Shown: in pieces, positions 4,403 to 33,058 of the stretch
How the letters are laid out: every line of letters starts with the position of its first letter
Position numbering within the stretch: the stretch's first letter is position 1
Assembly: GCA_903929755.1 (NCBI GenBank)
Contig: CAIYVZ010000046.1
Location: 1-33,161, forward strand
Reading direction: 5' to 3'
Origin: an uncultured Acidobacteriia bacterium
GTDB lineage: Bacteria > Acidobacteriota > Terriglobia > Bryobacterales > Bryobacteraceae
DNA: 33,161 bases
Notes under the pieces: model-generated
Database searches by the model: none
What the model saw: only the letters and a program-made list of their open reading frames with translations
What the model was told of the DNA's origin: nothing
Made by a program: the position numbers and the translations under genes

Positions 4403-4414
4403 ACCTGTAACCGG

Positions 4415-4434: not shown

Positions 4435-4439
4435 TTCGC

Positions 4440-4468: not shown

Positions 4469-4488
4469 GCATTGACGTCTGTTAGTAT
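4460..4488 (+). promoter_or_regulatory. Candidate sigma-70 promoter for the RRM gene
   Basis: TTGCAC (-35, 4460-4465), a 17-base spacer and TAGTAT (-10, 4483-4488) precede the RRM gene. The -35 box overlaps that of the divergent pyk promoter, so the two polymerases would compete. The predicted start is near 4495, leaving a leader of about 78 bases. Confidence 0.4.
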
Positions 4489-4533
4489 CAGGGAGACAAG
4501 AGTTCCGGTTTTTTCCCCTCCACTCTTGCCCTG
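4489..4533 (+). promoter_or_regulatory. Stem-loop in the 5' leader of the RRM gene
   Basis: CAAGAGT (4497-4503) pairs perfectly with ACTCTTG (4522-4528), and CAGGG (4489-4493) with CCCTG (4529-4533) after a 3-base bulge. The loop is 18 bases and pyrimidine-rich. The inner stem would form the start of the mRNA. Structured leaders are common on genes for small RNA-binding and cold-shock proteins, so autoregulation is plausible but untested. Confidence 0.4.
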
Positions 4534-4572
4534 GCCAAGCAAAAAATCCAACGGAGTCAAGCAGCAAACTGA

Positions 4573-4998: not shown

Positions 4999-5146
4999 TT
5001 CGGACCTCGACGCCGCACCCGATCTTGATCGACGTGCGGCCTCCGGTTCAGATCTCACATCTCACTCTGACGTTGTCCCGAACCGCACACCTGTGGAGGT
5101 TCCGCAACAGCTTTTCGGCACTGATCCCTATCAAATCAACATCTTG

Positions 5147-5180
5147 CCCCGTGGCGCTTACCGTGCCACGGGGATTTTTA
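5147..5180 (+). terminator. Strong rho-independent terminator
   Basis: CCCCGTGGC (5147-5155) pairs perfectly with GCCACGGGG (5165-5173). Two further pairs extend the stem inward, leaving a 5-base loop, and ATTTTTA follows. It would end the RRM transcript. The T-run ends directly at the ATG of the next gene, so it may also attenuate read-through into that operon. Confidence 0.8.
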
Positions 5181-6439: not shown

Positions 6440-6468
6440 GCCGAATTGTTGAGCTGAACTATTGAAGA
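6430..6468 (+). repeat. Three imperfect 13-bp tandem units
   Basis: GAACTATTGA, GAATTGTTGA and GAACTATTGA recur every 13 bases across the Omp85 stop codon and the start of the next gene. The first unit supplies the TGA stop (6437-6439) and the third supplies the TTG start (6462). It looks like a small slippage expansion. Confidence 0.6.
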
Positions 6469-7079
6469 AGCCGACCTTGTTTGCCGGGGCTGTGGCGCTT
6501 GCTGCCTTCGTGGCGGGAAGCGCTTTTGCCGTTGTCGTGGCGCAAACCAAACTGCTGGTCCATCTGGACGATGATTTCCTGCGAATCTCCGCCCCGCGCC
6601 TCAGTTTCCTCAGCGGCAGCGCTCTCGACCGGCTCAAGAGTGGTTCCACCGTCGCCTTTGTAGGGCAACTGACGGTTGCCGGAGTTCCGAATGCGGTGGT
6701 GGCTGACGCCCGCTCCGTGGCCCGTTTCGCCTTGAGCTACGACATTTGGGAGGAAAAATTCTCCGTAACCCGGTTTGGTGACCGTCCGGAGGCCCGGCGT
6801 ACCGTGAGCCACCTGTCGGCACAGGCCACCGAACGCTGGTGTCTGGACAGCATGGCCATCGCCTACGCGCAGCTCCCTGCTGAAAAGCCCTTCTACGTGC
6901 AGTTCGACCTTCGTCTGGAAGACCCCAAAGATCCTCTTGGCATCGTGGGCGATCCCGGAATCAACATCACGCGCCTGGTTGAGCTTTTTAGCCGCCCGGC
7001 GCGGGGGGCACAGCCGCGCTGGTTGCTGAACAGCGGGCCACACAAACTAGCCGAACTCCGGAAAGCGAGCCACAGTTGA
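6462..7079 (+). CDS. DUF4390 domain-containing protein
   Basis: The protein has 205 residues. An N-terminal hydrophobic segment (LFAGAVALAAFVAGSAFAVVVA) acts as a signal peptide or anchor. The DUF4390 body includes DFLRISAPRLSFLSGSALDRLKSG, RFALSYDIWEEKFSV and PFYVQFDLRL. The biochemical role of DUF4390 is not known; in other phyla it also sits directly before NtrY-like kinases, so it may be a periplasmic partner of the sensor. The start is TTG inside a 13-bp repeat, and the end overlaps the kinase gene by 4 bases (TTGA), which suggests translational coupling. Confidence 0.82.
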   Translation: MKKPTLFAGAVALAAFVAGSAFAVVVAQTKLLVHLDDDFLRISAPRLSFLSGSALDRLKSGSTVAFVGQLTVAGVPNAVVADARSVARFALSYDIWEEKFSVTRFGDRPEARRTVSHLSAQATERWCLDSMAIAYAQLPAEKPFYVQFDLRLEDPKDPLGIVGDPGINITRLVELFSRPARGAQPRWLLNSGPHKLAELRKASHS

Positions 7080-8449
7080 GTCTGCGGACCCGGCTTGCGC
7101 TGGTCTTTGTGGCCGCCACGCTGGTCCCGCTGGGGGCAACCCTTTGGCTGGCTTCCATTTTGATCGACCAAAGCCTGCGCCTGCGGCCGCCGAATCAGTT
7201 GACATCCCTTGCCGAGTCGCTTGAAAAAACAGGCCGTGAGTATTACCGCCAGGCCTGTGAGCAGCTCAAGACCGATGTAGGCAGCGGCAAATTGCAGGCC
7301 GTGAGGCCGGAAACACCAGAACTGAAGCAACTGGTAGAAGATTTCCGCTCCAGCGGCGAAACGGAACGGTTTGCGCGGAACGGCACTGAACTGGTTTACC
7401 TGGCGGGCGATAACGTCTGGGAAGCGCCGCTGCCGGTGAATCTGACTCAACTGGCGGAGCAGATCGCGAACGCTCGTTTAACTGCGGCGCGCGACTTGCG
7501 AAAAGGTGTTTTCGGCGCATGGTGGTTGCTGGCCGCCCTCATCTGGCTGTTTGCTCTGGGTCTGGTCTGGTGGGTGGCGACGCGCTTCAGTCGCCCGATT
7601 GTGAATCTGACGGCCGCGATGCGTGCGCTTGCCGCTGGCAATTTCCGGATTCGGGTGGAGCATGACCAAGCCGGGGAAATCGGCCTGGCAACCGACGCCT
7701 TCAACCAAACCGCGTCGGAACTGGAACGAAACCGGGATCGCCTCGTCTATCTGACCCAGCTGGCCAGTTGGCAGGTTTTGGCCCGCAAGATGGCGCACGA
7801 GGTGAAGAACTCACTCACCCCGATTCGCCTCACGGTTGAAGAAATGGTGGCCCGCCACGATGAGCCGGACCTTGAAGACCGCAAAGCTTTCCTGGCGCAG
7901 GCGGCCGGGATCGTAACCGACGAAATCGAGTCACTGGAGCGCCGCATTCGGGCCTTTTCTGAGTTTTCCTCCGAACCGCCTGTCTGCCCCGAGCCGCTGG
8001 ATCTGCCTGCGCTCGTCGAAGAGCGCATCGCGTTCCTGCGAACCGCCCACCCCGAGGTACGCTACGTGGTGGAAACTGCGAAAAACACGCCGTCCGCGGT
8101 AGCCGATCAGGATCTGGTGAAGGGAATCCTGGTCAATTTGCTGGAAAACGCGGCGGAAGCGGCCGGAGATGGCGGTAAGATTCTTGCCAAAGTGGCTCCC
8201 GCAGAATCTTCAGATGGTGCGCGCCGAGTGGCGATCGAAGTTCACGATTCCGGTCCGGGACTTAGCGAGATGGCCCGCAAATCTCTGTTTCAGCCCACCA
8301 TCTCGTTCAAACAGAGGGGTATGGGCCTCGGCCTCTCCATCGCACGCAAGAGCGCACTTCTCTCCGGCGGTGACATCCTGCTGATCGCCGGGGAACTCGG
8401 GGGGGCCGGCTTCCGCGTCCTGCTCCCCGCAGACGAACGGACAACTTAG
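7076..8449 (+). CDS. NtrY-like membrane sensor histidine kinase
   Basis: This inner-membrane kinase (457 residues) autophosphorylates and passes phosphate to a response regulator, most likely the NtrC-type protein encoded 8 bases downstream. Order of parts: transmembrane segment about 5-30, a periplasmic region of about 115 residues, a second transmembrane segment about 147-168, HAMP about 169-222, then a HisKA-type domain with His241 in HEVKNSLTPIRLTVEEM, an H-box typical of NtrY. The HATPase part shows the N-box LLENAAEAA, DSGPGLS and GMGLGLSIARK. There is no PAS domain between HAMP and the H-box. The start is TTG, overlapping the DUF4390 stop. Confidence 0.93.
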   Translation: MSLRTRLALVFVAATLVPLGATLWLASILIDQSLRLRPPNQLTSLAESLEKTGREYYRQACEQLKTDVGSGKLQAVRPETPELKQLVEDFRSSGETERFARNGTELVYLAGDNVWEAPLPVNLTQLAEQIANARLTAARDLRKGVFGAWWLLAALIWLFALGLVWWVATRFSRPIVNLTAAMRALAAGNFRIRVEHDQAGEIGLATDAFNQTASELERNRDRLVYLTQLASWQVLARKMAHEVKNSLTPIRLTVEEMVARHDEPDLEDRKAFLAQAAGIVTDEIESLERRIRAFSEFSSEPPVCPEPLDLPALVEERIAFLRTAHPEVRYVVETAKNTPSAVADQDLVKGILVNLLENAAEAAGDGGKILAKVAPAESSDGARRVAIEVHDSGPGLSEMARKSLFQPTISFKQRGMGLGLSIARKSALLSGGDILLIAGELGGAGFRVLLPADERTT

Positions 8450-16554: not shown

Positions 16555-17862
16555 ATGACTAGCCTTACCCGGACCGCGATCTGTGCGGCCATCCTCCTTT
16601 CAGGTACTGCGGCCCTTAAGGTCGCCTCAGCCGCCGCCAACCCAAAAGACGTTCTCACTGGCGAAAAGGCTTTCGCCAGCTTTACCGACGTCAAAGCCGG
16701 TGTCTGGCGCCACATCACAGCGAAAGATCTGCCAAAGCCCGGTGCCACGCCATCCGCTTCAAACGGAGCCAAAGTTGTGGCGCGTCCTGCGGATGCCTGG
16801 CCCCAGGCGCTCCCGGGCTTCAAAGTGGAACTCTACGCCACCGGGCTGCTGAATCCCCGCCTCACCCGCACTGCGCCCAACGGCGACATGTTTGTGGCTG
16901 AAACCACAGGCAAGGGCGAGATCAAAATCTTCCGTGGCATTACCGCCGACGGCAAGTCGAAGGAAACCTCCACCTTCGCCACGGGTCTGAATCAGCCTTT
17001 CGGGATTGCTTTTTACCCTCCAGGGCCGAATCCTCAGTTCGTTTACGTCGGAAATACCGATTCCGTGGTCCGTTTCGCCTATAAAAATGGCGACCTGAAG
17101 GCTTCCGGCAACCCCGAAACCATCATTTCCGGCATCCCGACAGGTGGCCACTCCACCCGAGACGTGGCGTTTTCGCTCGACGGCAAGAAAATGTTCGTTT
17201 CAGTCGGTTCGCGCTCCAATGTGGATGACCCCGACACCACACCCGCCGAAAAGCTCCGTGCGAACATCCTGCAGTACACTCCGGACGGCAAGTTCGTGAA
17301 GGTTTACGGGGCGGGCATTCGCAACCCGGTCGGCATCGCGGTGAACCCGATTACCGGCGAAGTCTGGTGCTCGGTGAACGAACGTGACCAGTTGGGGGAT
17401 AATCTTGTCCCGGACTACGTCACCTCCGTGAAAGAAGATGGTTTTTACGGCTGGCCCTGGTTCTATACGGGAGCCAACCAGGATCCTCGCCATGAAGGTA
17501 AGCACCCGGAACTGAAGAATAAGGTCATCGTCCCCGACGTTCTGCTGCAGCCCCACAACGCTTCGCTCGAACTCACCTTCTACGACGGTAAGATGTTCCC
17601 GAAGGAATACGACGGCGATATTTTCGCCGCCGAGCACGGTTCCTGGAACAAGTCGGTCCGTACGGGCTACGAAGTGGTTCGCATCCCGCTCACCAAAGGC
17701 AAGGCTTCCGGGATCTACCAGGACTTCCTGACTGGCTTCGTTTTACCGAATGGCGATGTTTGGGGTCGTCCGGTCGGTGTCACCACAGCCCCCGACGGCT
17801 CACTCATGGTTACCGATGACGGCTCCCGGTCCATTTGGCGCGTCAGCTACACCGGGAAGTAG
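16555..17862 (+). CDS. Periplasmic PQQ-type sugar (sorbosone) dehydrogenase-like protein
   Basis: The protein has 435 residues. The signal peptide covers about residues 1-27 (ending KVASA). The body is a soluble-glucose/sorbosone-dehydrogenase six-bladed propeller: LPGFKVELYATGLLNPRLTR, FATGLNQPFGIAFYP, GHSTRDVAFSLDGKKMFVSVGS, YGAGIRNPVGIAVNPITGEVWCSVNERD, DGFYGWPWFYTG, EHGSWNKSVRTGYEVVRIPL and GRPVGVTTAPDGSLMVTDDG. Family enzymes oxidise sugars in the periplasm with PQQ; whether PQQ is bound here is not visible, and no PQQ synthesis genes are in the window. The next gene, a multihaem cytochrome, starts one base after this stop and is a likely electron acceptor (inference). Confidence 0.9.
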   Translation: MTSLTRTAICAAILLSGTAALKVASAAANPKDVLTGEKAFASFTDVKAGVWRHITAKDLPKPGATPSASNGAKVVARPADAWPQALPGFKVELYATGLLNPRLTRTAPNGDMFVAETTGKGEIKIFRGITADGKSKETSTFATGLNQPFGIAFYPPGPNPQFVYVGNTDSVVRFAYKNGDLKASGNPETIISGIPTGGHSTRDVAFSLDGKKMFVSVGSRSNVDDPDTTPAEKLRANILQYTPDGKFVKVYGAGIRNPVGIAVNPITGEVWCSVNERDQLGDNLVPDYVTSVKEDGFYGWPWFYTGANQDPRHEGKHPELKNKVIVPDVLLQPHNASLELTFYDGKMFPKEYDGDIFAAEHGSWNKSVRTGYEVVRIPLTKGKASGIYQDFLTGFVLPNGDVWGRPVGVTTAPDGSLMVTDDGSRSIWRVSYTGK

Positions 17863-17863
17863 G

Positions 17864-20053
17864 ATGCGCCTCGCTTTCGCGCTTCTGCTGGCTGGCGGAC
17901 TCTTGCCCGCATTGGCCGCGGTTCCGGCGAAGGTCTGCGCCACCTGCCATCAGGAAGCGGCGAGCCGCTATTTTTCAACTGGTATGGGACGGAGTTTTTA
18001 TCGCCCCAGTCCCGCCAATATCGTTGAAGACTACACCAGGAACAATACGTTTGAGCACCAGCTTTCGGCGACCCGCTACGCCATGACGCGGCGCGGCAAC
18101 CAGTTCTTCCAGAAGCGCTGGCAGGTCGGGTTCGACGGCAAAGAAACCAACGTCGAGGAGTACCGGGTCGATTACATTCTTGGTTCCGGGAATCATTCCA
18201 GGACGTATTTGACTCGCCGTCCGCAGGGCGGGCTGGTGGAGCTCCCCATCAGTTGGTATTCGGAGAAGGGCGGCTACTGGGGTATGAGTCCCCAGTTCGA
18301 CACCAGGCACCCCCTCACGCGGCGCTTTATTTCCTACGAGTGCTACTCCTGCCACAACGCCTACCCCGAGATTCCGAAGCCCGTGGAAATGGGTAATCCG
18401 GTTTTCCCGGCCATGCTGGCGGAGGGCATTGATTGCGAACGCTGCCACGGGCCGGGGGAGGCACATGTGAAGGCTCCCAGCGCAGCTACCATCCTGAATC
18501 CGGCGCGCCAAACTCCTCAAAAGCAGCTGGAAGTTTGTTTGCAGTGCCATCTGGAATCCACCAGCACAGAGATTCCTGCGCTCATTCGGCGCGTCAATCG
18601 GGGGCCGTTTTCGTACGTTCCCGGGCAACCCCTCACCGACTTTCTCCTGTTCTTTGATCACGCCCCGGGGAAGGGTTTCGACGATAAATTCGAGATCGTC
18701 GGCAGTTCCGCCTACCGCATGATGAAGTCGCAGTGTTTCCTGAAGAGCGAAGGGCGGCTGACCTGCGTCACCTGCCACAATCCCCACCAGCTGGAAACCA
18801 ATATGGATGCGAAATGCCGCAGTTGCCATGCTGCCACCTTCACCGCTTCGGTTGCCGCCGGACGCCATACCGCCGCTGCGGATTGTGCCGGATGTCACAT
18901 GCCGAAGCGACGTCCGGCAGACGTGGTCCACACCGTTTTCACGGATCACCTCATCCAGCGCCGCCCGCCTCCAGGTGATCTGCTGGCCGAAATTCCGGAG
19001 CGTCATGTCGCCGAAGCACAGGAATACAGGGGGGCGGTGGTCCCCTACGGCCCGCGGGACCTGGCGACCCAGCCCGACGGTCCCCTCTATATCGGACTCG
19101 CCCAGCTTCAGCGTGGCAATAACCTGGCTGCAGGAGCCACCCTGCTGGCGTCGGAAATCGGACGGCGGAAACCGACCGAACTGGTATGGTATTTTTCCCT
19201 GGCGGAGGCGTGGCAAAAGCTGGGGAAGCACGACGAAGCCGCTGTTGCCTACAAGCAAGCTCTGGCCCTCAAACCCGATTCCGTGACCGCTCAACTTGGT
19301 CTGGCCCAGCTCTCCGCCTCGGTCGGCGGGGATAAATTCGCGTCTGCCGCCCTCGTCCTTGATCGGGCACTGAAAGCTGCCCCCCGAGATCCAAACCTGC
19401 TTTTTCAGCGTGCGCTGGTATCTTTTGCGCAGGGCCAGGCCCCTGTCGCCGCTACCCAACTCAGGCGGGCACTGGCCCTCGATCCCGATATTCCCGAAGG
19501 CTGGACTCGCCTCGGTGAAGTCCTTGCCAGTTCCAGCCAGATGCCCGAGGCCGAGAAAGCTCTGCGCCAGGCCCTTCGTATGGATCCGGCTGATGCCTCC
19601 GCCTGGGACTGGCTGGGGCGTGTCCTGATGGCCGGTCCCCGCACGCCCGAGGCAATCTTCAGTTTCCGCAAAGCCGTGAGCCTTCGTCCCGGGTTCGGCC
19701 CGCATCTTTACGATCTGGCTTTGGCGCTCTCCCGCAGCCAGCAGGCCACGGAAGCCCGCACTACCGCGGAAGCAGCCGTGAAGGCCGTCCCCGAAATGCC
19801 CGAAGCGCACATCTTACTGGCTGGCATCTATTCCGGCCAGCGTGCCTGGGCAGAGGCCCTGCGGGAATACCGCCAGGCCATCGTGCTGCGCCCCGACCTT
19901 GGCCAAATCCGCCTCGACCTGGCCACTGTTCTCCTGGCCCAGGGCGATACCAAATCCGCCATCGATGAACTCCGGGTAGCGACCGCCGATCGTGAACCCC
20001 AGGTGGCCCAAAACGCCGCAGCTGCCCTTCGTCGCCTTAGTACCGCCCCCTGA
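17864..20053 (+). CDS. Seven-haem c-type cytochrome with C-terminal TPR domain
   Basis: From ATG 17864 the protein has 729 residues with a signal peptide (about 1-19). Seven CxxCH haem sites lie at about residues 25, 160, 191, 225, 301, 318 and 341 (CATCH, CYSCH, CERCH, CLQCH, CVTCH, CRSCH, CAGCH). The CERCHGPGEAH and CVTCHNPH contexts are typical of cytochrome c554-like multihaem proteins. From about residue 400 to the end come roughly eight TPR repeats (for example LAEAWQKLGKHDEAAVAYKQ and WDWLGRVLMAGPRTPEAIFSF). Haem attachment requires the periplasm. The TPR half probably docks a protein partner. It is tightly coupled to the upstream dehydrogenase. The start at 17864 is chosen for the signal peptide; the frame upstream only shadows that gene. 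Confidence 0.93.
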   Translation: MRLAFALLLAGGLLPALAAVPAKVCATCHQEAASRYFSTGMGRSFYRPSPANIVEDYTRNNTFEHQLSATRYAMTRRGNQFFQKRWQVGFDGKETNVEEYRVDYILGSGNHSRTYLTRRPQGGLVELPISWYSEKGGYWGMSPQFDTRHPLTRRFISYECYSCHNAYPEIPKPVEMGNPVFPAMLAEGIDCERCHGPGEAHVKAPSAATILNPARQTPQKQLEVCLQCHLESTSTEIPALIRRVNRGPFSYVPGQPLTDFLLFFDHAPGKGFDDKFEIVGSSAYRMMKSQCFLKSEGRLTCVTCHNPHQLETNMDAKCRSCHAATFTASVAAGRHTAAADCAGCHMPKRRPADVVHTVFTDHLIQRRPPPGDLLAEIPERHVAEAQEYRGAVVPYGPRDLATQPDGPLYIGLAQLQRGNNLAAGATLLASEIGRRKPTELVWYFSLAEAWQKLGKHDEAAVAYKQALALKPDSVTAQLGLAQLSASVGGDKFASAALVLDRALKAAPRDPNLLFQRALVSFAQGQAPVAATQLRRALALDPDIPEGWTRLGEVLASSSQMPEAEKALRQALRMDPADASAWDWLGRVLMAGPRTPEAIFSFRKAVSLRPGFGPHLYDLALALSRSQQATEARTTAEAAVKAVPEMPEAHILLAGIYSGQRAWAEALREYRQAIVLRPDLGQIRLDLATVLLAQGDTKSAIDELRVATADREPQVAQNAAAALRRLSTAP

Positions 20054-23175: not shown

Positions 23176-25182
23176 ATGAATAAGCTTGTAAAGAAAATCC
23201 TCTTCTGTATCGCCATTGCCATGGGGAGCGTCGTCGCCACGCTTCTGATGGGCAATGTTGAGTTTTTTAAACAGTTGGACCTGAAGGCGCAGGATGCTCA
23301 CTTCGTTCTTCGGGGCAAGCTGCCCGAAACGGCCACCAAAGACTTTCGCGTTATCTATGTCGATGACAAGACGCTGAAGGCAGTTCCGGATCCTACCCTG
23401 TTTTGGCAGCCTCTTTACGGTAAGGCTATGCGCGCCGTCGCAGCCGGAGGCGGCAAGGTTATGGTCATCGACCATGCTTTCCTCATCAACGTAGAAAAGT
23501 ATGAGACTACGGTTGACGGGAAACGCACCACTCGCGATGCGGATCTCTCCGAGGCGTTTACTGAGGTCTCTGCCCAAATGCCGGTCATTTGCGCGGTGGT
23601 GGAGATCCCGAAAAACCAGCAGGACAATCCCGACTTCATGGTTCCCATGAACAAAATGGCTGCCTTTTTTGGCACCTTCGGTAGTCCGAAGCTCACCGCC
23701 GACAGTGACGATTTCATCCGTCTCCAGGAGTTAATCGCCCGTGGCGACGACAATGTCTGGAACAGCACGCTGGCTCTTCGTGCAGCAGAGAAGTATTTAG
23801 GCAAAGACGTAGTCGTGAAAACCGCGAAGGGTGAGCAGGACCGGCTGTTTCTTGCCGACCATGAAATCCCCGTCACGGCCGACCACCAGCTGACCATCAA
23901 TTACGCCGGGCCGCCCTACACCTTCCCGAAAGTATCCCTGATCGACGTGCTCCAGGCTTTCGACGCGGGCGATACAGAGAAACTGAAACAATGGTTTGGG
24001 GGCAAGGTTGTCCTGTTGGGCGATGACAGCCGCGAAGACCGCCGAGCCACTCCTTTTTATACGGCCTTCACGGCCCTGTCCAATAAGACGACCGGAGTGA
24101 GTGCGGAAGATGCGCCGCCCCCGGCCTACACCACGCCCGGAGTTGAGATTCACGCCAACGTGATCCGGACTCTTCTGTCCGGGGAGTACCTGAAACCGGT
24201 GCCTGAGTGGGGGCGTATCACCGCGCTAACGGTCGCGGCCTCGGTGTGCGTCGCCATTTCCGTGGCGTTTGCTGTTTCCCATACGCTTGCTCTCGCTACG
24301 CTCGCCCTTGCGCTGTTGATGGTGGGAACCCACCTTCTCTTCCGTCAGGGCCTGCTGCTCTCCACCTCGCAAATCGGGTTGTCGTTCGCGTGGGCACTGG
24401 TTGGCGGCATCGTTTACCGTTTCGCCACGGCCGAAAAGAAGAGTACGTTCTTCAAGAACGCCATCGGCTTGTTCGTGGGCAGGCAGGTAGCCACGTCGCT
24501 CGAGCACAGCGAAAAAATCTCGATGACCGGCAAACGTCAGCTGGTCACCATCCTTTTTACCGACATTCGTGGCTTCACGGCCTTTTGCGAGTCGAAGGAC
24601 CCGGCTGTTGTCGTCGATCTGCTCAACATCTATATGTCCACTATGGTCGGCCTGATCGTTAAGTACGGTGGCCATGTGAACAAGTTCATCGGCGACGGTA
24701 TCCTCGCCGTTTTCTGCGATGACGACCCCGGAGCTGTTCCCGGCGATCACGTCCTGCGCTGCACCAAATGTGCCGCTGAAATTGTTGTGAACGAGGTTTG
24801 CGGGTTCAAGACCGGTGCCGGGTATCACGTCGGCGAAGTGATTATCGGCAACGTCGGTTCACAGGACAAACTGGAATTTACGGTGCTGGGTAACACCGTC
24901 AACATGGCATCGCGGCTGGAAAGCCTCAACAAGGATCAACATTCAAGACTGTTAATGAGTGAAGAGTCCAATGAAATGTTACATGGTGAAATTGACACCA
25001 TATACATGGGAGCCGTCCCGGTGAAGGGCAAAACCGATCTCATGAAGCTTTATTCCGTTACGTCTCTTCTGGATGCGGAGCGAATCGCCGATCTGAATGA
25101 GAAGTACCCGGAAATGCAGGCGAAGAACCATGAGAAGGCGGAGCAGGCAAAGCAGGCAAAGCAGGCAAAAGCTGCGGCCTGA
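23176..25182 (+). CDS. CHASE2-domain class III adenylate cyclase
   Basis: This membrane sensor-cyclase (668 residues) is expected to make cAMP in response to an external signal. Order: transmembrane segment about 8-25, periplasmic CHASE2 domain about 30-335 (FRVIYVDDKTL, VMVIDHAF, GKVVLLGDDSREDRR, PGVEIHANVIRTLL), three transmembrane helices about 346-416, and the cyclase domain about 453-630. Metal-binding Asp463 lies in LFTDIRGFT and Asp507 in KFIGDGILAVF. Substrate Lys503 is present; Thr569 takes the place of the second base-selecting residue, as in many bacterial CHASE2 cyclases. VNMASRLE supplies the transition-state Asn576 and Arg580. The tail has three AKQ-type repeats. AAGAG lies 6 bases before the ATG. 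The caspase gene follows after 36 bases. Confidence 0.93.
   Translation: MNKLVKKILFCIAIAMGSVVATLLMGNVEFFKQLDLKAQDAHFVLRGKLPETATKDFRVIYVDDKTLKAVPDPTLFWQPLYGKAMRAVAAGGGKVMVIDHAFLINVEKYETTVDGKRTTRDADLSEAFTEVSAQMPVICAVVEIPKNQQDNPDFMVPMNKMAAFFGTFGSPKLTADSDDFIRLQELIARGDDNVWNSTLALRAAEKYLGKDVVVKTAKGEQDRLFLADHEIPVTADHQLTINYAGPPYTFPKVSLIDVLQAFDAGDTEKLKQWFGGKVVLLGDDSREDRRATPFYTAFTALSNKTTGVSAEDAPPPAYTTPGVEIHANVIRTLLSGEYLKPVPEWGRITALTVAASVCVAISVAFAVSHTLALATLALALLMVGTHLLFRQGLLLSTSQIGLSFAWALVGGIVYRFATAEKKSTFFKNAIGLFVGRQVATSLEHSEKISMTGKRQLVTILFTDIRGFTAFCESKDPAVVVDLLNIYMSTMVGLIVKYGGHVNKFIGDGILAVFCDDDPGAVPGDHVLRCTKCAAEIVVNEVCGFKTGAGYHVGEVIIGNVGSQDKLEFTVLGNTVNMASRLESLNKDQHSRLLMSEESNEMLHGEIDTIYMGAVPVKGKTDLMKLYSVTSLLDAERIADLNEKYPEMQAKNHEKAEQAKQAKQAKAAA
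25143..25169 (+). repeat. Three 9-bp tandem repeats in the cyclase tail
   Basis: GCAGGCAAA occurs three times in a row, encoding the AKQAKQAKQAK-like C-terminus. The copy number could vary by slippage without changing frame. Confidence 0.7.
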
Positions 25183-25218
25183 TTTCCTGCGGGTCGGAAT
25201 AGTGGGTAAAGGAACTCA

Positions 25219-28005
25219 ATGAAACGGGTAGCGGCAGCAGCTTTGTTGGCGGTCTTCTCCCTCCGGGGCGACGCGCCGAAAGAACAGCCGGTCGGGCTTG
25301 TATTGTCCCCCGGCGGGAGCAAGGTGCTGCGCGCCAAGACGGCGACCCCGCTGGCCACGCGCGCCGGCGATATCCTGTTCTCCGGCGACTCCCTGCAGTC
25401 CGCCGGAGCCTCCGTTGCCTTTGTTTACTGCCCCAGCAAGACATCCCAAATGCTGGATCCTTCGAGCGAAGTTCTCCTCGATACCCAGCAGGTCAAGGTA
25501 CGGTCGGGGAAAATCGGCGCTACTAAACCGGCCAACACGTGCTACCTTCCCACCGTCGCCCGGGTTTCGCCCGCCTCGGAACAGCACTACGGGGTGAGCA
25601 TGACTCGCGGTCTCGCCAAACCGGAAGGCGATATTGTCGCTTTCGCTGCGTTGCCGGCCGCAGTGAAGGTTCAGTTGGCACCGTTTGAAGAAGCATTGAA
25701 AGCTGACCCGAATGACGCGCAGGCTCTGGTGGAGGAGGCTTCCGTCTTTGAGCGGGCGAAACTCGGAGCCAACGCCCTCGCCATGTATCGCAAGGCGATT
25801 GCCATTTGGCCAGACGCAGTATGGATTCGCGGTCGTGTTTTCGAACTGGAAGAGAACCTGGCCACGGAAGCGGCTATAAAGGCTGCCGCCATCTCGCCCG
25901 ACGCGAAAACCTTCGCCATGATTGTTGGTATCGGCAAGTACCAGAAGCTCCCGCAGGAGCTCTGGCTGCAGTTCCCTGGCGCCGATGCAAAAGCTTTTGG
26001 CGATTTCCTGGGCACCAAAGCGGGCGGCGGTGTTCCTGCCGACCAGATGCTGGTGCTCTCCGATGAACAGGCCACCACCGCGGCGCTCCGTAACGCTTTC
26101 CACACTTTCCTGAAATCCCGTCCAGGCAAGAAGGATACGGTCTTCATCCTGCTGGCCGGGCATGGCACGGTTGATACGCGTGGAGCGTACCTTGTCACCT
26201 ACGATTCCGATCCGCAGGACCTCTCCACCACAGCCATGCCCATGGCAGAACTCCAAAAGCTTGTGGAAGAAGAACTCTCACAAGTTGGCCGCGTCGTCTT
26301 GCTTGCTGACGTCTGCCGGGCCGCCACTATCGGGAATACGAAACCCGCTTCTATTGCGGCGGTAGTGGAAAAGCTGGGGGAAGCTCCCGGTGAAATGCTG
26401 GGGCTCATGGCTTCCCGCCCGAAAGAGCTGGCTACCGAAGGCACCCAGTTTGGTGGCGGTCACGGCGCTTTCACCTGGTCCATTCTGCAGGCGCTGGAAG
26501 GCCAGGGTGATGAGAACAAAGACAAATCCGTCACGGCTGGGGAACTCATCGACTACGTCCGCGGCGATGTCCCCGGCAAGACAGGCAGTAAACAGCACCC
26601 CCGCGATTTCGGGAATATGGAAAACGCGACGAAGCTCTCAGACGTATCGAGAGCGGGCGTCAACATCACCCGCTTCAAGTCGCTCTTCGATTCGCGCAAT
26701 GGCGGACCTCTCTTTATCGCCTCAGCCGCCGATGATATTCCGTTAAGCGATGAAGCCCGCCGCGACGTGGAAGCCTTTCAGGCCGCAATCCGCGACAAAA
26801 AACTCCTGCCCGGCGAGCAGGGCAGCGCCTTCGACATGCTGGCGAAACTGCGTGCCGAACTGAAGCCGGAACTCGCTCAGATGCAGGAGAACTCTCTCCG
26901 TATCGCGCTGGAAAACATGGCGCAGCAGGTTTTGCTTCGCTACCTGGCGGGTGACCAGACTCCGCAGACTAAGGGCGATTTCGACGCCGGCTCCCGCTAC
27001 ATGGAAGCTGCCATGCGGCTTACCCCGGAATCGCTCTACCTTCAGGGGCGCGACAACTTCTTCGCCGGCCGTGCCATGCTCTTCGAAAAAAACTTCGCGG
27101 GTGCCGCCGATCTTCTTGAAAAGTCCGTCCGGATCGATCCAGGCGAGGCGTACGGCTACAACGCCCTCGGGATCGCTTACCTGGAGCAGGCGTCGTTCCC
27201 GCAAGCCATTCCGGCGTTCCGTGACGCGGCACGCCTGGCGCCCAACTGGTCCTATCCTCTCCACAATCTGGCGCTGGCTTATGTGGAGTCCGGGGATACG
27301 GAAGGCGCGGTCCGTGCCTACCAGCAGGGCATGAAGGTGACACCGCAATACGCGTACCTGCCTTATAATCTCGGGCTCATTTACCAGCGGACCAACCGCC
27401 GCCGCGAAGCCGAAACTGCGTATCGCCGCGCGGCCGTGCTCGCGCCCGACTCTGCCGAACCCCTCAACGCCCTCGGTTCTCTCAAAGCCTCACAAGGGCG
27501 CACTGCCGAAGCCGAGAAGCTCTACCGCGACGCGCTGAAAAAAAATCCTGCCTCCGTTCCCACCCGGCATAATCTCGCTCTTCTGCTTTCCGGCAGTAAA
27601 CGGGGTGAAGACGAGGCCATCGACAACTGGAAGCAGATTCTGGCGGCCAGAAGCGATTTTCTGGCCTCACGCCTCGCCCTGGCCGAACTCTATGCCAAAC
27701 GGGGTGATCCCGCCTCCGCAATTGAGCAATACCGTGAAGTTATCGCCGCCCGCCCCGAGTACATTGCCGCCCGTATTGCGCTGGCCGGTCAGTTATTCAA
27801 AGCGAATCAGCCCGAAGCCTCTCTGGAGCAACTCGAAGCGGCTCTCAAGGTAGAATCAGGCAACGCCTCATTGTGGGAACAGGCTGGCGACGCTCACCAC
27901 GCACTAAAGCAGATCGATCAATCGCACGCGGCTTACACCGAAGCGATCAAATTAGAGGAAGATAAGGCCGCCCGAAAGCGTATCCGGGCGAAAATGGCAT
28001 CTTAA
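25219..28005 (+). CDS. Caspase-fold (C14) protein with FecR-like N-terminus and TPR C-terminus
   Basis: The protein has 928 residues. Order: signal-like N-terminus (MKRVAAAALLAVFSL), FecR-like beta region about 25-110 (GDILFSGDSLQSAGASVAFVY), caspase/orthocaspase domain about 228-450, linker, and many TPRs about 580-928. Catalytic His315 (LLAGHGTVD) and Cys366 (LLADVCRAA) form the expected dyad. An EF-hand-like loop lies at about 431-442 (DENKDKSVTAGE). Orthocaspases cut after Arg or Lys, but the target is unknown. Export would put the protease outside the cytoplasm, although the signal peptide is short and its cleavage site unclear. AGGA sits 6 bases before the ATG. It lies between a cyclase and an MBL-fold hydrolase with gaps of 36 and 2 bases, so all are probably one operon. 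Confidence 0.9.
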   Translation: MKRVAAAALLAVFSLRGDAPKEQPVGLVLSPGGSKVLRAKTATPLATRAGDILFSGDSLQSAGASVAFVYCPSKTSQMLDPSSEVLLDTQQVKVRSGKIGATKPANTCYLPTVARVSPASEQHYGVSMTRGLAKPEGDIVAFAALPAAVKVQLAPFEEALKADPNDAQALVEEASVFERAKLGANALAMYRKAIAIWPDAVWIRGRVFELEENLATEAAIKAAAISPDAKTFAMIVGIGKYQKLPQELWLQFPGADAKAFGDFLGTKAGGGVPADQMLVLSDEQATTAALRNAFHTFLKSRPGKKDTVFILLAGHGTVDTRGAYLVTYDSDPQDLSTTAMPMAELQKLVEEELSQVGRVVLLADVCRAATIGNTKPASIAAVVEKLGEAPGEMLGLMASRPKELATEGTQFGGGHGAFTWSILQALEGQGDENKDKSVTAGELIDYVRGDVPGKTGSKQHPRDFGNMENATKLSDVSRAGVNITRFKSLFDSRNGGPLFIASAADDIPLSDEARRDVEAFQAAIRDKKLLPGEQGSAFDMLAKLRAELKPELAQMQENSLRIALENMAQQVLLRYLAGDQTPQTKGDFDAGSRYMEAAMRLTPESLYLQGRDNFFAGRAMLFEKNFAGAADLLEKSVRIDPGEAYGYNALGIAYLEQASFPQAIPAFRDAARLAPNWSYPLHNLALAYVESGDTEGAVRAYQQGMKVTPQYAYLPYNLGLIYQRTNRRREAETAYRRAAVLAPDSAEPLNALGSLKASQGRTAEAEKLYRDALKKNPASVPTRHNLALLLSGSKRGEDEAIDNWKQILAARSDFLASRLALAELYAKRGDPASAIEQYREVIAARPEYIAARIALAGQLFKANQPEASLEQLEAALKVESGNASLWEQAGDAHHALKQIDQSHAAYTEAIKLEEDKAARKRIRAKMAS

Positions 28006-28007
28006 AA

Positions 28008-28841
28008 ATGGCTGACGCAAACGCTCAACTCCGATTTTGGGGTGTCCGGGGGTCTACCCCCACCCCCACAATCGAAAATCTTACCTTTGGTGGTAATACG
28101 TCGTGCGTTGAAATTCGCACGGCTGACGACCAGTGCATCATTCTGGACGCCGGAAGCGGTATCCGCAACCTGGGTCAGAACCTGATAAAGGAGGCGGGCG
28201 GCCAAAACATTCAGGCGCACGTCTTCCTGAGCCACTTCCACTGGGACCATATCCAGGGTGTGCCTTTCTTCGCGCCCATCTACGGGCCGAAAAACGAAGT
28301 GTCGTTTTACTCCGGCATCCAGGGCCGGCCTTTGCAGGAGACCCTGGAAGGCCAGATGGCGCAACCTTACTTCCCGGTTAAATTTGACCAGGTGGCGGCG
28401 CAGCGGAACTTCCACACCATCGCCCGCGACGGGGTTATTGAACTCGGCTCCGCGCGAATCACCCCTTTTGAGCTGAACCACCCGCAGGGCGCCACCGGAT
28501 ACCGCATTGAGGTTGGCGATGCCGTGATCGTCTATGCCACAGATTACGAACACGGGGATCCCCGTCTCGACGAGGTCCTTCGGCAGCAGGCGCAGGGTGC
28601 GGATATTCTGATCTGCGATGCGCAGTACACGCCGGCCGAATACGAGACTCATCGCGGCTGGGGCCACAGTACCTGGCTCAACGCCGTGCAGGTGGCTCGC
28701 GAAGCCGGTGTCCGGCGCCTCTTCCTGTTTCATCATGACCCCGTCCATGACGACCAGACTATGATGCGTATCTCGGAAGACGCCCGGATGCATTTCGAGA
28801 ACGCCATCGCTGCCTGGGAAGGCTTCGTCGCCGTTCTGTAG
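28008..28841 (+). CDS. Metallo-beta-lactamase-fold hydrolase
   Basis: The protein has 277 residues and no signal peptide. The MBL core is clear: LRFWGVRGSTPTP, TSCVEIRTADDQCIILDAGSG, the zinc motif SHFHWDHIQG (His76, His78, Asp80, His81), VIVYATDYEH and a late FLFHHDP. This subgroup (GVRGS start) resembles phosphodiesterase/RNase Z-like MBL proteins rather than beta-lactamases. Its position in a cyclase operon, 2 bases after the caspase gene, makes cyclic-nucleotide hydrolysis an attractive but unproven guess. Confidence 0.9.
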   Translation: MADANAQLRFWGVRGSTPTPTIENLTFGGNTSCVEIRTADDQCIILDAGSGIRNLGQNLIKEAGGQNIQAHVFLSHFHWDHIQGVPFFAPIYGPKNEVSFYSGIQGRPLQETLEGQMAQPYFPVKFDQVAAQRNFHTIARDGVIELGSARITPFELNHPQGATGYRIEVGDAVIVYATDYEHGDPRLDEVLRQQAQGADILICDAQYTPAEYETHRGWGHSTWLNAVQVAREAGVRRLFLFHHDPVHDDQTMMRISEDARMHFENAIAAWEGFVAVL

Positions 28842-28868
28842 CGGCATAAGCGGAGCGATAATGAAGGC

Positions 28869-29204
28869 ATGAACACTGCGCCGGATCAAACAACTCTGGA
28901 CCGTCTCGATCATGTCGCCATTGTGGTTCCCGATATTGCCGCCGCCGTCACCTGGTACACCAGCAATATGAAGTGTGAGGTGGCGTATCAGGATGCCAGT
29001 TGGGCCATGCTCAAGTTCGCCAATACCGGAATCGCCCTCGTGTTGCCGGGCCAGCACCCTGGTCACCTCGGCTTCGTCACCGACGATGCTGAAAAGTACG
29101 GGGTGCTGAAGACGCACCGCGACGGCACAAGATCCTGCTATATCTACGACCCTGCAGGAAATGCGGTAGAAATGCTGGCAGCGGATTCCATGCCCGCCCG
29201 GTAG
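28869..29204 (+). CDS. VOC-family (glyoxalase/dioxygenase fold) protein
   Basis: This 111-residue protein has the vicinal-oxygen-chelate beta-alpha-beta pattern: LDHVAIVVPDIAAAVTWYTSNMKCEVAYQ at the start and SCYIYDPAGNAVEML at the end. The possible metal ligands are His15, His67 and Glu104. At about 110 residues it is a short single-module member that would work as a dimer. It follows the MBL gene by 27 bases and may be the last gene of the cyclase operon. Substrate unknown. Confidence 0.85.
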   Translation: MNTAPDQTTLDRLDHVAIVVPDIAAAVTWYTSNMKCEVAYQDASWAMLKFANTGIALVLPGQHPGHLGFVTDDAEKYGVLKTHRDGTRSCYIYDPAGNAVEMLAADSMPAR

Positions 29205-29917: not shown

Positions 29918-32900
29918 TCAGAGTACCACTTTTTTCGCAACCGATATCTCGTAGGACGGGTCCATTCCAAAGCGAATACGATATCTGCGGGCGAACTCCC
30001 CGGGCTCCGAAAGCTCCGGCTTCAATCCCTCCGCGAAGTACATGCGCAGATCCCGCTTGTCCTTCGTCTGCACATGGCCGCGCTCTTCACATTCGATGAA
30101 CTCTTCCACCAGAGCCCACGTGCTTTCCGATAGATTCACCCGGCCCACTGCACCCGAAGATTCCATCCTCGACGCCAGATTCACGGTATTGCCCCAAATA
30201 TCGAACGCGAACTTGCGGACGCCCACCACACCTGCCGCCACCGGGCCGCTGTGAAGACCCACGCGAACTTGCCACACCGGACCTTCTCCGCGCAGAGCAA
30301 GTTCCTCCACGGCCTCCACCATCTTCAAAGCTGCCAGCACCGCGTCCACCGCGTGCGCCGCGCGGGGCTTTGGCAAACCGCTCACCAGCATGTAAGCGTC
30401 CCCGATGGTCTTCAGTTTCTCCAGTCCGAACTCTTCCACAATCTCGTCGAACGAGGTGAAGTATTCGTGCAGGGCCGAAACCAGCTCTCCGGCCGGCAAC
30501 GCTTCGCTCGACAGCGTGAAGCCGGCAAAGTCGGTAAAGCAGACCGTTACTTCGTCATAGTTTTGCGGCTGAACTATGCCGCTGCGCTTCAGTTCTTCCG
30601 CGACAGACGCGGGGAGAATATTCAGCAGCAGCGTCTCTGACTTTTCCTGCTCTACCAAAATCTGGTCGCGCTGTTCCCGGATCTCTTCAGTCCGCTCCTC
30701 AACAATCTGCTCCAGTTGCGCTTTCTCAGCCTCCAGTTTGCTTACCCGCCACTTCAGCAGACTCCAGAACGACAGGCCCAGCGCCGTTACATAGAAGAGA
30801 TAAGCAGGCCACGTTCGAAACCACGGTGGTTGCACTGAAAAACCGAAGGCAGCCTGCCTGCTAACCGTCCCCGCGCCGTTCTTGGCCCGCACCAGGAATC
30901 GGTACGTGCCTTCCCAAAGATGCGTATAGTCCTTTGTGGTTTCCTGGCTCCAGTTCGACCATGCGGAATCCGCACCCTCCAGCCTGACCTGATATTCCAC
31001 CCGGTTCTGATCGTTCAGCCAGGGGGCGGCGAATTCAAACCGCAGCGAGTTGTCTTCGTGCCCGATTCGCGCAGGCTTCCTGTCACCCAAACCAGCGTAA
31101 GCGCCGTCGTAAGCAATAGATCCGCCCTGTGTTTGCACGCGCCTGACGAACACCGAAAAGTCCGGAGCGGTCGGTTGCGCCTGCGGTGTATACCGCGCCA
31201 GAAAACCATCTGTTCCCGCAGCCCAAACCGTGCCGTCGCCTTCCGGCAGGACCGCGTAAAGCTCGGCCAGTTCGGCCTGCCCCAGCGTCATCGGCTTCCA
31301 TGTCCAGGCTCCCTTGCTGGTGGGCACAAGTTCCCCGTGATATCCATCGCCGGAGATCCATAGCCCTCCGTTGGGCGCCTCCCGAACGAGCGATACGGGT
31401 CTGGACCCATCTGCAAATTCGCGTCCTGCGCCCAGCCAGGGAACGAAGATACCTTTTCCTGGCTCGAAGGCCCGCAGGCCCTTTGGTGTTGCAACAACCA
31501 CCTCGCCCCGAATTCGATAGATGTTTTTGAAGCCAGCCGGAACACCCGCGTCTGCACCAAACCGTTTGACGCGCGCCTCCGTCTCACGCCAGTCAATTCG
31601 AACAACGTCCTTCTGCGTGGCCGCCCACACCACGCCGTCCGGGCCTTCAAGCACAGATCGGAAGTCCTCCGAGCTTCCCGGGAACGTCCGCTCCTGCTTC
31701 CACTTGCCGCCTGCCAGCCGCATGGAAAAGACCGACTCGCGGGCAGCCACATAGGCAAGTCCTGGATCGCGCGACGACAGCGAGACGTCGAAGGGCGCGT
31801 GTGTGGCCATGGCGAGTGTTGCCTTCGCGCCCACAACGGAGTAGATGCCATCAGGGAATACCACCAGCAGCCCATCGGGTGTCTCCGCCATCGCGGATAC
31901 AAGGCCATTCGCTCCCGTCACTGGCTCAAAAGCGGCGAGCGTCTTCAGGCTTCCCGTCAGCCGAAACAGGCCCTGATCCGTGCCCACGTAAACAACGCCC
32001 TGATACCTGGCCACCGTGTATGCGGAGCCCTGTAGTCCCTCGCTGTGGGAGAACCTGGTCATTGCCAAATTCGCCCGATCCAGACCAGCGGTAGATGTTA
32101 CCCAAACGCCCCCTTCGCGATCCTCAAAAATGCTGCTCGTCGCATTGGCCAGCAGGCCATGGTCTTTATCGATGCGCCTTTCCAGTTGTCCATCCGGAGA
32201 GAGCAGGAAAACGCCCGCCAGTCTGGTCGCAACAGCCAAAGATCCGCTGCGCAGAGGTGCGGCCGCGTATATCTGCCCCTCCCCAAGTAACTTCGCGGCG
32301 TTGCCGATCTTTGCTTCCAGGTTCCCCTCGCGCAGGCGCAGAATCCCCTTGAAGGTTGCCAGTTCCAGACCCTGCCCCCGCTCGAAGATCGACCGTAGTT
32401 CCGTGCTGCTCAGGCGCTCACCGCCCTTCACTGGCTGCAGGTTGTCCCCAGACATGCGCAACAGACCTTGCCCCTGAGACACGACCCATACCGTTCCTGC
32501 CGCCCCGATCAGGCGTCCAAACCTGATTTGTGGTTTCCAAGCCCGGAGTTTTCCGTCCGTGCGGGACCAGCGATAAATACCTTCATAAGCCCCGAAATAG
32601 ACTCCCTGCGGCGTCGGGATGATGGTTCTGACATCCCGAAAGTTCCTTGCCTCCGGCGGAATCAGGGCGGTAAGGGACCGGTATGTCATACCGCCCTGAG
32701 CATCAGGCTCGAGATAGCCGAAGTCTCCAAGCCCACCCACATAGACCAGGGATCCGTCGGTCGCCACGGATGGGGCCGGCGCACCACCCGGCAGCGGAAT
32801 CCGGCGCCAGCTAACCCCGTCGTATTCCAGAACGCATTCGGTGTTCGCGAAGTAGAGGATGCCCCGGCTATCCTGGGTTACCGCCAGGTTTTGCGGAGAT

Positions 32901-33058
32901 GCCTTATAGTTCTTCGGGGTGAAACTCCTGATCAGGGGCGAGCCCACTTCGTCGGCGGCCCGAACCGCCGGGCCCGCAGCCTGTTGCGCCTGCAGGACGA
33001 GAACAAATAACAACCCAAAGGCTAGGAGCCTGTCGGGATGAAAAAAGGCGACATGCAT
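29918..33058 (-). CDS. Propeller/Y_Y_Y sensor fused to a class III adenylate/guanylate cyclase
   Basis: This large membrane receptor-cyclase has 1046 residues. Order: signal peptide or anchor about 1-26, periplasmic beta-propeller about 40-640 with two-component-regulator repeats (SIFEDREGGVWVTSTAGLDR, SVLEGPDGVVWAATQ), Y_Y_Y domain about 668-742, transmembrane helix about 752-768, coiled coil about 772-812, and a cyclase domain about 832-1015. Metal ligands Asp843 (CFTDFAGFT) and Asp887 (KTIGDAYM), base-selecting Lys883 and Asp953 (FDIWG) and the VNLASRME Asn960/Arg964 are intact; the Lys/Asp pair favours ATP as substrate. The input half is that of hybrid polysaccharide-sensing histidine kinases, here wired to a cyclase. 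Upstream (33059-33161) I see no promoter before the window ends. Confidence 0.92.
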   Translation of the reverse strand: MHVAFFHPDRLLAFGLLFVLVLQAQQAAGPAVRAADEVGSPLIRSFTPKNYKASPQNLAVTQDSRGILYFANTECVLEYDGVSWRRIPLPGGAPAPSVATDGSLVYVGGLGDFGYLEPDAQGGMTYRSLTALIPPEARNFRDVRTIIPTPQGVYFGAYEGIYRWSRTDGKLRAWKPQIRFGRLIGAAGTVWVVSQGQGLLRMSGDNLQPVKGGERLSSTELRSIFERGQGLELATFKGILRLREGNLEAKIGNAAKLLGEGQIYAAAPLRSGSLAVATRLAGVFLLSPDGQLERRIDKDHGLLANATSSIFEDREGGVWVTSTAGLDRANLAMTRFSHSEGLQGSAYTVARYQGVVYVGTDQGLFRLTGSLKTLAAFEPVTGANGLVSAMAETPDGLLVVFPDGIYSVVGAKATLAMATHAPFDVSLSSRDPGLAYVAARESVFSMRLAGGKWKQERTFPGSSEDFRSVLEGPDGVVWAATQKDVVRIDWRETEARVKRFGADAGVPAGFKNIYRIRGEVVVATPKGLRAFEPGKGIFVPWLGAGREFADGSRPVSLVREAPNGGLWISGDGYHGELVPTSKGAWTWKPMTLGQAELAELYAVLPEGDGTVWAAGTDGFLARYTPQAQPTAPDFSVFVRRVQTQGGSIAYDGAYAGLGDRKPARIGHEDNSLRFEFAAPWLNDQNRVEYQVRLEGADSAWSNWSQETTKDYTHLWEGTYRFLVRAKNGAGTVSRQAAFGFSVQPPWFRTWPAYLFYVTALGLSFWSLLKWRVSKLEAEKAQLEQIVEERTEEIREQRDQILVEQEKSETLLLNILPASVAEELKRSGIVQPQNYDEVTVCFTDFAGFTLSSEALPAGELVSALHEYFTSFDEIVEEFGLEKLKTIGDAYMLVSGLPKPRAAHAVDAVLAALKMVEAVEELALRGEGPVWQVRVGLHSGPVAAGVVGVRKFAFDIWGNTVNLASRMESSGAVGRVNLSESTWALVEEFIECEERGHVQTKDKRDLRMYFAEGLKPELSEPGEFARRYRIRFGMDPSYEISVAKKVVL

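What the first reader, a model, noticed from the sequence alone, without database searches (positions are those of the whole stretch)
23176..29204. Cyclase–caspase–MBL operon: a candidate cAMP/orthocaspase signalling unit
Four same-strand genes with gaps of 36, 2 and 27 bases encode a CHASE2 adenylate cyclase, a FecR-like/caspase/TPR protein with an intact His315/Cys366 dyad, an MBL-fold hydrolase and a VOC protein. The first three could form a circuit: signal in, cAMP made, protease regulated, nucleotide degraded. Domains and order are seen directly; the circuit is inference. I know of no characterised bacterial system with this gene order.
Basis: partly seen in the sequence, partly recalled or inferred. 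Interest (0 to 1): 0.75.

Follow-up and report, generated by a model that had tools for sequence, protein, structure and literature searches.

The report
Exported caspase tied to cAMP cyclase
In a group of environmental bacteria, a membrane enzyme predicted to make the messenger cAMP is kept next to an exported caspase-like protease and an enzyme likely to destroy cAMP, which suggests a signalling line from the cell surface inwards rather than the cAMP-controlled protease first proposed.

Summary
The four genes, gaps and caspase dyad are as described. The CHASE2 cyclase–caspase–MBL trio is a conserved operon-like unit in its genus (Bryobacterales, Acidobacteriota): cyclase beside caspase in 16 of 16 testable genomes, MBL directly after in 18 of 18, while flanking genes change. 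Outside the genus the cyclase–caspase pair mostly persists; MBL goes its own way. The VOC gene is only loosely linked.

The proposed circuit must be turned round. The caspase protein has a predicted signal peptide and, besides its catalytic cysteine, only an invariant cysteine pair; in one relative it is fused behind the cyclase. It is probably periplasmic, on the CHASE2 side, out of reach of cAMP. Its N-terminus is weakly FecR-like; five relatives have cyclase plus that domain without caspase. A low-copy outer-membrane barrel gene co-occurs with the caspase protein (44 genomes each, 40 shared, of 200) and is often adjacent. MBL is probably a cAMP phosphodiesterase: outside the genus it lies beside a class III cyclase in 13 of 20 loci looked at.

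I propose barrel → FecR-like/caspase/TPR protein → CHASE2 cyclase → cAMP. CHASE2-cyclase/FecR/TPR/phosphodiesterase clusters are already described in Campylobacterota; the built-in exported caspase makes this a new variant.

The parts
23176..25182 (+). CHASE2 class III adenylate cyclase (668 aa): N-terminal TM, periplasmic CHASE2 (res 21-357), TM cluster from about res 348, cytosolic cyclase (res 455-626)
   Evidence: Pfam PF05226 and PF00211 over cut-off; hydropathy; D463, K503, D507, T569, N576, R580 invariant in 15 sequences
25219..28005 (+). Exported FecR-like/caspase/TPR protein (928 aa)
25219..25275 (+). Predicted signal peptide of the caspase protein (res 1 to about 19)
   Evidence: 12-residue hydropathy peak 2.57, against at most 1.95 in 84 internal stretches; pLDDT under 50 for res 1-18
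25261..25548 (+). Weakly FecR-like all-beta domain with invariant Cys71 and Cys108 (25429-25431, 25540-25542)
   Evidence: stand-alone beside the cyclase in 5 relatives
25900..26670 (+). Caspase (C14) domain, His315 at 26161-26163, Cys366 at 26314-26316, Asp364 two before it
   Evidence: Pfam PF00656 res 232-461; dyad invariant in 37; lowest dN/dS of five segments in one species pair
26899..28002 (+). TPR superhelix (res 561-928)
28008..28841 (+). MBL-fold hydrolase, probable cyclic-nucleotide phosphodiesterase; metal motif SHFHWDH at 28230-28250
28869..29204 (+). VOC-fold protein, loosely linked, probably not part of the unit
   Evidence: Pfam PF00903; within 3 kb of MBL in 8 of 18 genus contigs
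29918..33058 (-). Second class III cyclase (Reg_prop/Y_Y_Y), converging on the MBL gene; possible second source of the nucleotide that MBL removes
   Evidence: 43-62% identical to cyclases that lie beside MBL in eight loci of other genera

Best explanation
An outside-in cAMP signalling unit. Shown by sequence: conserved gene order, domains, conserved active-site residues, predicted membrane sides. Inferred: the exported FecR-like/caspase/TPR protein sits in the periplasm, receives a signal from the outer membrane (a linked Oar-like barrel is the candidate partner) and acts on the periplasmic CHASE2 domain of the cyclase; the cyclase makes cAMP in the cytosol; the MBL protein hydrolyses it and resets the system. 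The caspase domain most likely acts as a protease in the periplasm that cuts itself, the FecR-like domain or a partner to switch CHASE2 signalling; this last step is the least certain.
For: Cyclase and caspase are same-strand neighbours (matched ranges at most 135 bases apart) in 25 of 34 cyclase hits in 200 order genomes; of the other 9, two lie at contig ends (G014, G039) and five are followed by an exported protein with only the FecR-like part. Signal-peptide-like starts on caspase, caspase-only and FecR-like-only proteins; 14 of 15 caspase starts score 2.0 or more against 0 of 18 MBL starts. Cys71/Cys108 are the only other cysteines in the window protein and invariant in 37. One fused cyclase-caspase ORF with the signal peptide as internal hydrophobic stretch. 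Barrel and caspase protein: 44 genomes each, 40 shared. MBL beside a class III cyclase in 13 of 20 loci (six genera), in genomes that hold 29 such cyclases in all, and 8 bases from a cNMP-binding oxidoreductase gene in L088.
Against: No biochemistry, expression or interaction data. Two of the 34 cyclase hits are real exceptions: G173, whose cyclase faces an unrelated convergent gene, and G158:C258, a CHASE2 protein without the cyclase part and with neither partner. Export rests on hydropathy, not on a dedicated predictor; the measure is not specific (VOC scores 2.33), a 19-residue scan finds no segment in the caspase protein, and the window's own cleavage region looks atypical. The FecR-like assignment is weak. 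The barrel is not beside the trio in this genome but beside a caspase-only paralogue on another contig, and 20 of 52 barrel hits are not within 5 kb of these genes. Outside the genus MBL is not directly beside the cyclase-caspase pair in any of the 35 rows compared, though four lie 1.6-3.5 kb away; it fails NCBIfam's phosphodiesterase cut-off (72 of 400 bits). The fused ORF is one MAG and its joint holds a palindromic repeat, so it may be accidental.
Confidence: 0.53

Rival explanations
1. One reading: cAMP made by the cyclase directly controls a cytosolic caspase, and MBL degrades cAMP.
For: Gene order and domains; MBL linkage to cyclases. A published cyanobacterial metacaspase-CHASE2 fusion is predicted to keep its caspase in the cytoplasm (PMC3501461, passages).
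Against: Signal-peptide-like starts on most orthologues examined, the cysteine pair, no cNMP-binding domain found in the caspase protein, topology of the fused ORF.
Confidence: 0.06
2. Inside-out: cAMP raises expression of an exported caspase that acts on the envelope or neighbours (remodelling, death); the cyclase is co-transcribed for regulation only and the proteins do not touch.
For: Exported caspase with conserved dyad; linkage to an outer-membrane barrel; published suggestion that some bacterial metacaspases act outside the cell (PMC3501461, passages).
Against: The FecR-like part alone, without caspase, still follows the cyclase in 5 relatives, which points to CHASE2/FecR-like contact; cyclase and caspase overlap by 4 bases in 8 of 13 loci.
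Confidence: 0.2
3. The caspase fold is a non-proteolytic scaffold between FecR-like and TPR parts; signalling is by binding only.
For: Versions without caspase exist beside the cyclase, so proteolysis is not needed for the core function.
Against: His315, Asp364 and Cys366 invariant in 37; the p20 segment has the lowest dN/dS of five segments, 0.039 (one pair of species, dS above 1).
Confidence: 0.13
4. The MBL protein is an RNase Z-like or other hydrolase, unrelated to cAMP.
Against: Its gene lies beside class III cyclases in 13 of 20 loci outside the genus and beside a cNMP-binding gene in L088; its motif, and YhfI among its nearest folds, fit atypical class-II phosphodiesterases, themselves close to RNase Z (PMC9293780, passages).
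Confidence: 0.15

Closest known systems
CHASE2-cyclase/phosphodiesterase/FecR/TPR gene cluster of Campylobacterota (PMC9239204, passages)
   Same: CHASE2 cyclase, cAMP phosphodiesterase, FecR-domain and TPR parts in one neighbourhood; suggested there to be one pathway
   Different: No caspase is mentioned in the passages seen; FecR and TPR are separate proteins there, one protein with a caspase between them here; the FecR part here is below Pfam detection
mtxA followed by a CHASE2 adenylate cyclase gene in magnetotactic bacteria (PMC4439547, passages)
   Same: Exported protein with a TPR fold beside a CHASE2 cyclase, suggested to signal at the periplasm
   Different: MtxA has an Ig-like fold and no caspase is mentioned; its solved structure was not among the sequence matches of relatives L048 and L209
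Burkholderia BiofilmReg operon: LysM-FecR protein plus CHASE2 histidine kinase (PMC5192318, passages)
   Same: Exported FecR-domain protein paired with a CHASE2 receptor
   Different: Output is a histidine kinase; no caspase or cyclase among the four genes described
Rv1339/YhfI/CpdA atypical class-II phosphodiesterases (PMC9293780, abstract start and passages)
   Same: [T/S]HxHxDH motif; YhfI is among the nearest solved folds
   Different: 20-21% identity to YhfI in the fold match; fails the NCBIfam cut-off
Trichodesmium metacaspase-CHASE2 fusion (PMC3501461, PMC2853523, passages)
   Same: Caspase coupled to CHASE2
   Different: Caspase predicted cytoplasmic there, exported here; no cyclase domain mentioned in the passages seen

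Membership tests
CHASE2 class III nucleotide cyclase | CHASE2 and class III catalytic domains over curated cut-offs | tested here: met
   94.5 bits (cut-off 26.3) and 73.1 (21.9)
CHASE2 class III nucleotide cyclase | metal, base-selecting and transition-state residues | tested here: met
   D463, K503, D507, T569, N576, R580 invariant in 15; their roles are recalled
Bacterial caspase homologue (C14, orthocaspase) | p20 domain with His/Cys dyad | tested here: met
   PF00656 44.9 bits, cut-off 21.4; dyad invariant in 37
Bacterial caspase homologue (C14, orthocaspase) | peptidase activity after Arg/Lys | not testable with these tools
   needs assay
EACC1-associated caspase (NF047832) | NCBIfam cut-off 140 bits | tested here: not met
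   71.3 bits
FecR regulator family (PF04773) | Pfam FecR domain | tested here: not met
   no hit at E 0.5; weak profile match only
FecR regulator family (PF04773) | extracytoplasmic location | tested here: inconclusive
   predicted signal peptide by hydropathy only
Atypical class-II phosphodiesterase | [T/S]HxHxDH metal motif | tested here: met
   SHFHWDH, THFHWDH or THYHWDH in 17 of 17
Atypical class-II phosphodiesterase | NCBIfam NF041851 cut-off 400 bits | tested here: not met
   72.1 bits; that this model stands for the Rv1339 kind is recalled
Atypical class-II phosphodiesterase | cAMP hydrolysis | not testable with these tools
   needs assay
Campylobacterota-type CHASE2 cyclase/PDE/FecR/TPR cluster | the four functions encoded together | tested here: inconclusive
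   cyclase and TPR met, PDE probable, FecR weak; the paper's own sequences were not compared

The most novel reading that the evidence does not exclude
A trans-envelope relay with its own protease built in: an outer-membrane barrel signals to a periplasmic FecR-like protein whose caspase domain cuts itself or a partner, and the cut switches a CHASE2 cyclase, turning an outer-membrane event into a cAMP pulse that the MBL phosphodiesterase ends. It would be a caspase used as a receptor-side switch of a second messenger, not as its effector.
Probability: 0.25. Interest if true: 0.85.

Novelty: new variant of a known kind. Interest (0 to 1): 0.62.

Why it matters
Roles of bacterial caspase homologues are mostly unknown and are usually discussed as death or immunity (recalled; the abstracts and passages seen agree). 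Here one is predicted outside the cytosol and kept beside a receptor cyclase, in a family where versions with and without the caspase exist. That makes a clean question testable: what does a caspase add to a CHASE2/FecR-type signalling pair? The gene-neighbourhood evidence also names a likely cyclic-nucleotide phosphodiesterase family in this order of Acidobacteriota.

Tried and rejected
cAMP acting on the caspase: rejected on predicted topology. VOC as a fourth member: rejected, loosely linked. MBL as a fixed member of the cyclase-caspase unit: true only in the genus; elsewhere MBL often lies beside other cyclases. FecR by Pfam: no hit. Fold search of the whole caspase protein: the 50 best rows shown are TPR or similar helical-repeat proteins, so the N-terminal fold was not identified by structure. 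Solved-structure sequence search of the caspase part gave two marginal PelD hits (E 0.03), taken as chance. Phylum sample: cyclase-model matches in 63 of 297 genomes, caspase-model matches in 14 of 297, and the adjacent pair, by listed coordinates, only in G000 and G061, whose caspase is split between two contigs. The one paper holding FecR, adenylate cyclase and caspase is a review of circular RNAs (listing only).

I lowered the main confidence from 0.55 to 0.53 for the first.

Rows dropped before counts. One search used 57 of the 90 rows as caspase proteins (pieces included) and 13 as caspase-only; 20 further rows with p20-only matches in other proteins were left out, which is why 44 and not 64 genomes count as having the caspase protein. 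It used the first 50 of 64 MBL rows. One search took 20 of the 35 non-genus MBL rows among those 50. Alignment A5 left out L109 (stop in range), short or truncated loci and L110-L112. Genomes are related, so the Fisher values are not probabilities of independent events and I do not lean on them.
Full report
WHAT IS THERE. Pfam confirms CHASE2 plus class III cyclase, C14 caspase plus TPRs, an MBL hydrolase and a VOC protein. Upstream lie prfA and prmC with a 126-base gap; downstream, on the other strand, a short protein with no family hit and a second class III cyclase with Reg_prop and Y_Y_Y domains. The genome is a 6.86 Mb assembly in 212 contigs; its named relatives are mostly titled as Bryobacterales, Terriglobia or Acidobacteria MAGs.

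IS IT A UNIT. I compared the 18 other genomes of the genus. Cyclase and caspase are direct neighbours in 16 of 16 genomes where contigs allow the test, this one included (G014, G016 and G017 break there), and MBL follows the caspase in 18 of 18 (G005 breaks there). In 8 of 13 measured loci cyclase and caspase overlap by 4 bases, and caspase and MBL lie between -1 and +7 bases apart in all 13, using start codons my script chose. The surroundings change: prfA-prmC flank the trio here and in G008, and are not found in the ten other genus stretches that hold at least 6 kb upstream; the rest are too short to tell. The genes are under purifying selection (dN/dS 0.03 to 0.17; dS above 1 in every comparison, so rough). 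VOC lies within 3 kb of MBL in 8 of 18 genus contigs.

BEYOND THE GENUS. In the same 200 genomes of the order I searched cyclase, caspase, MBL and barrel profiles and compared positions. Of 34 cyclase hits 25 have a caspase protein beside them on the same strand, matched ranges at most 135 bases apart. Of the nine others, two sit at contig ends (G014, G039); five (G168, G124, G092, G033, G095) are followed by a 222-231 aa protein with a signal-like start that matches only the N-terminal FecR-like part; G158:C258 is a CHASE2 protein without the cyclase part and with neither partner; and in G173 the cyclase faces an unrelated convergent gene, by eye a glucose-6-phosphate dehydrogenase, so it is a real exception. 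In G057, of another family in the class, the cyclase is followed by two FecR-like-part proteins and faces a divergent caspase gene. So the older pairing may be CHASE2 cyclase with a FecR-like protein, the caspase-TPR part being gained or lost; I did not build a tree to decide. In the phylum sample only G000 and G061 show the pair.

WHICH SIDE OF THE MEMBRANE. The caspase protein begins with a short positive stretch and a hydrophobic core, in many relatives followed by an AxA-like site; caspase-only paralogues and FecR-like-only proteins look alike there. With a 12-residue window, 14 of 15 caspase starts reach 2.0 (L042 does so only from an earlier start), none of 84 internal stretches of the window protein do, and 0 of 18 MBL starts do; the VOC protein scores 2.33, so the measure is not specific. 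A 19-residue scan finds no segment. The window protein has three cysteines: the catalytic Cys366 and the pair Cys71/Cys108, all invariant in 37 sequences, as expected of a disulfide outside the cytosol (inference). In L107 cyclase and caspase form one open frame in which the signal peptide would be a membrane helix, putting the caspase on the CHASE2 side; the joint holds a palindromic repeat and it is one MAG. The cyclase has an N-terminal helix, the CHASE2 region, a helix cluster and then the catalytic domain, the CHASE2 receptor layout also described in PMC5192318. Hence cAMP and caspase are probably on opposite sides.

THE FecR-LIKE PART. Pfam FecR is not hit. Profile comparison with nine Pfam-FecR stretches from these genomes gives 79-83% probability over 54-58 columns, against 0.3% for an MBL control, and the model is all-beta there (pLDDT block means 91-95 for residues 21-100). 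Pfam-FecR hits lie within 3 kb of 3 of 24 CHASE2 hits in ten genomes (G197:C67, G057:C17, G092:C1); none of these is the window's cyclase.

THE BARREL. A gene for an outer-membrane barrel with CarboxypepD_reg and, in two of three scanned, a Plug domain (PF25183) lies beside cyclase or caspase in many loci. All 19 genus genomes have a strong match. In 200 order genomes it is found in 44, the caspase protein in 44, both in 40; 37 of the 44 have one match, with three candidates scored per genome; 32 of 52 barrel hits lie within 5 kb of cyclase, caspase or caspase-only genes, and in the 13 where the cyclase is nearest the two are on opposite strands. In the window's genome it follows a caspase-only paralogue on contig C164. 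In several genus genomes it stands elsewhere, for example beside a kinase-TPR gene. This linkage is why I propose an outer-membrane input; it is inference.

THE MBL PROTEIN. Outside the genus it is not directly beside the pair; 4 of 35 rows are 1.6-3.5 kb away. Of 20 such loci looked at (of the 35), 13, from six genera, have a class III cyclase as direct neighbour, of several architectures (Reg_prop, FHA, response regulator among those scanned); 7 do not. These 20 genomes hold 29 such cyclases, so chance would give about 0.01 adjacencies (my estimate, 6000 genes per genome; related genomes are not independent). The window's own second cyclase is the relative (43-62%) of those neighbours in eight of the loci, so here MBL lies between two cyclases. 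In L088 MBL is 8 bases from a gene for an NDH2-like oxidoreductase with a cNMP-binding domain. The motif [T/S]HxHxDH fits the atypical class-II phosphodiesterases, which are close to RNase Z (PMC9293780, passages), and the nearest solved folds include a Bacillus ELAC homologue, YhfI and RNase Z. The NCBIfam model for a cyclic-nucleotide phosphodiesterase is not passed.

MECHANISM. Shown: order, conservation, domains, residues, predicted sides. Inferred: barrel or envelope signal, to exported FecR-like/caspase/TPR protein, to CHASE2, to cAMP, ended by MBL. The caspase dyad is invariant and the loop after Cys366 (372-380) is poorly ordered in the model, where caspases are often cut (recalled). 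What it cuts is unknown.

WHAT IS KNOWN. Campylobacterota have clusters of CHASE2 cyclase, cAMP phosphodiesterase, FecR protein and TPR protein, suggested to be one pathway (PMC9239204, passages). mtxA, for an exported TPR-fold protein, precedes a CHASE2 cyclase gene (PMC4439547, passages). FecR plus CHASE2 histidine kinase is the Burkholderia BiofilmReg pair (PMC5192318, passages). The reference list of PMC9239204 cites an outer-membrane barrel, NsrA, in plant-signal perception in Sinorhizobium (that paper is not held); that it works through CHASE2 cyclases is recalled. No paper in the library holds CHASE2, caspase and adenylate cyclase together; seven hold CHASE2 and caspase, in three of which I saw passages. 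So the design is known in outline; the exported caspase inside it is the new part.

Noticed in passing
window 29918-33058 (-): A second class III cyclase (Reg_prop/Y_Y_Y) converges on the MBL gene; its relatives are MBL's direct neighbours in eight loci of other genera.
   Followed up: partly
L051 (G000:C164:12000-27000), about 4150-8280: A caspase-only gene with a signal-like start, followed within about 20 bases (matched ranges) by the one strong match of the barrel family in this genome; same pair in G003, G008 and G016.
   Followed up: partly
L107 7154-12733: Cyclase and caspase in one open frame of 1859 codons, with a palindromic repeat at the joint.
   Followed up: partly
L088 12688-15104 (-): NDH2-like oxidoreductase with a cyclic-nucleotide-binding domain, 8 bases from the MBL gene.
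   Followed up: no
L094: Record titled Bordetella parapertussis MAG; the genes seen resemble Bryobacterales, so the label is probably wrong.
   Followed up: no
L216 2775-5120 (-), L037 14241-16610 (+): Ser/Thr kinase-TPR genes next to the barrel gene.
   Followed up: no
L081, L083, L084; G096:C35, G158:C51: A caspase-only gene directly follows the cyclase-caspase pair, where MBL stands in the window's genus.
   Followed up: no
window 17750-20053 (+): TPR protein with weak multihaem cytochrome (CXXCH) matches.
   Followed up: no
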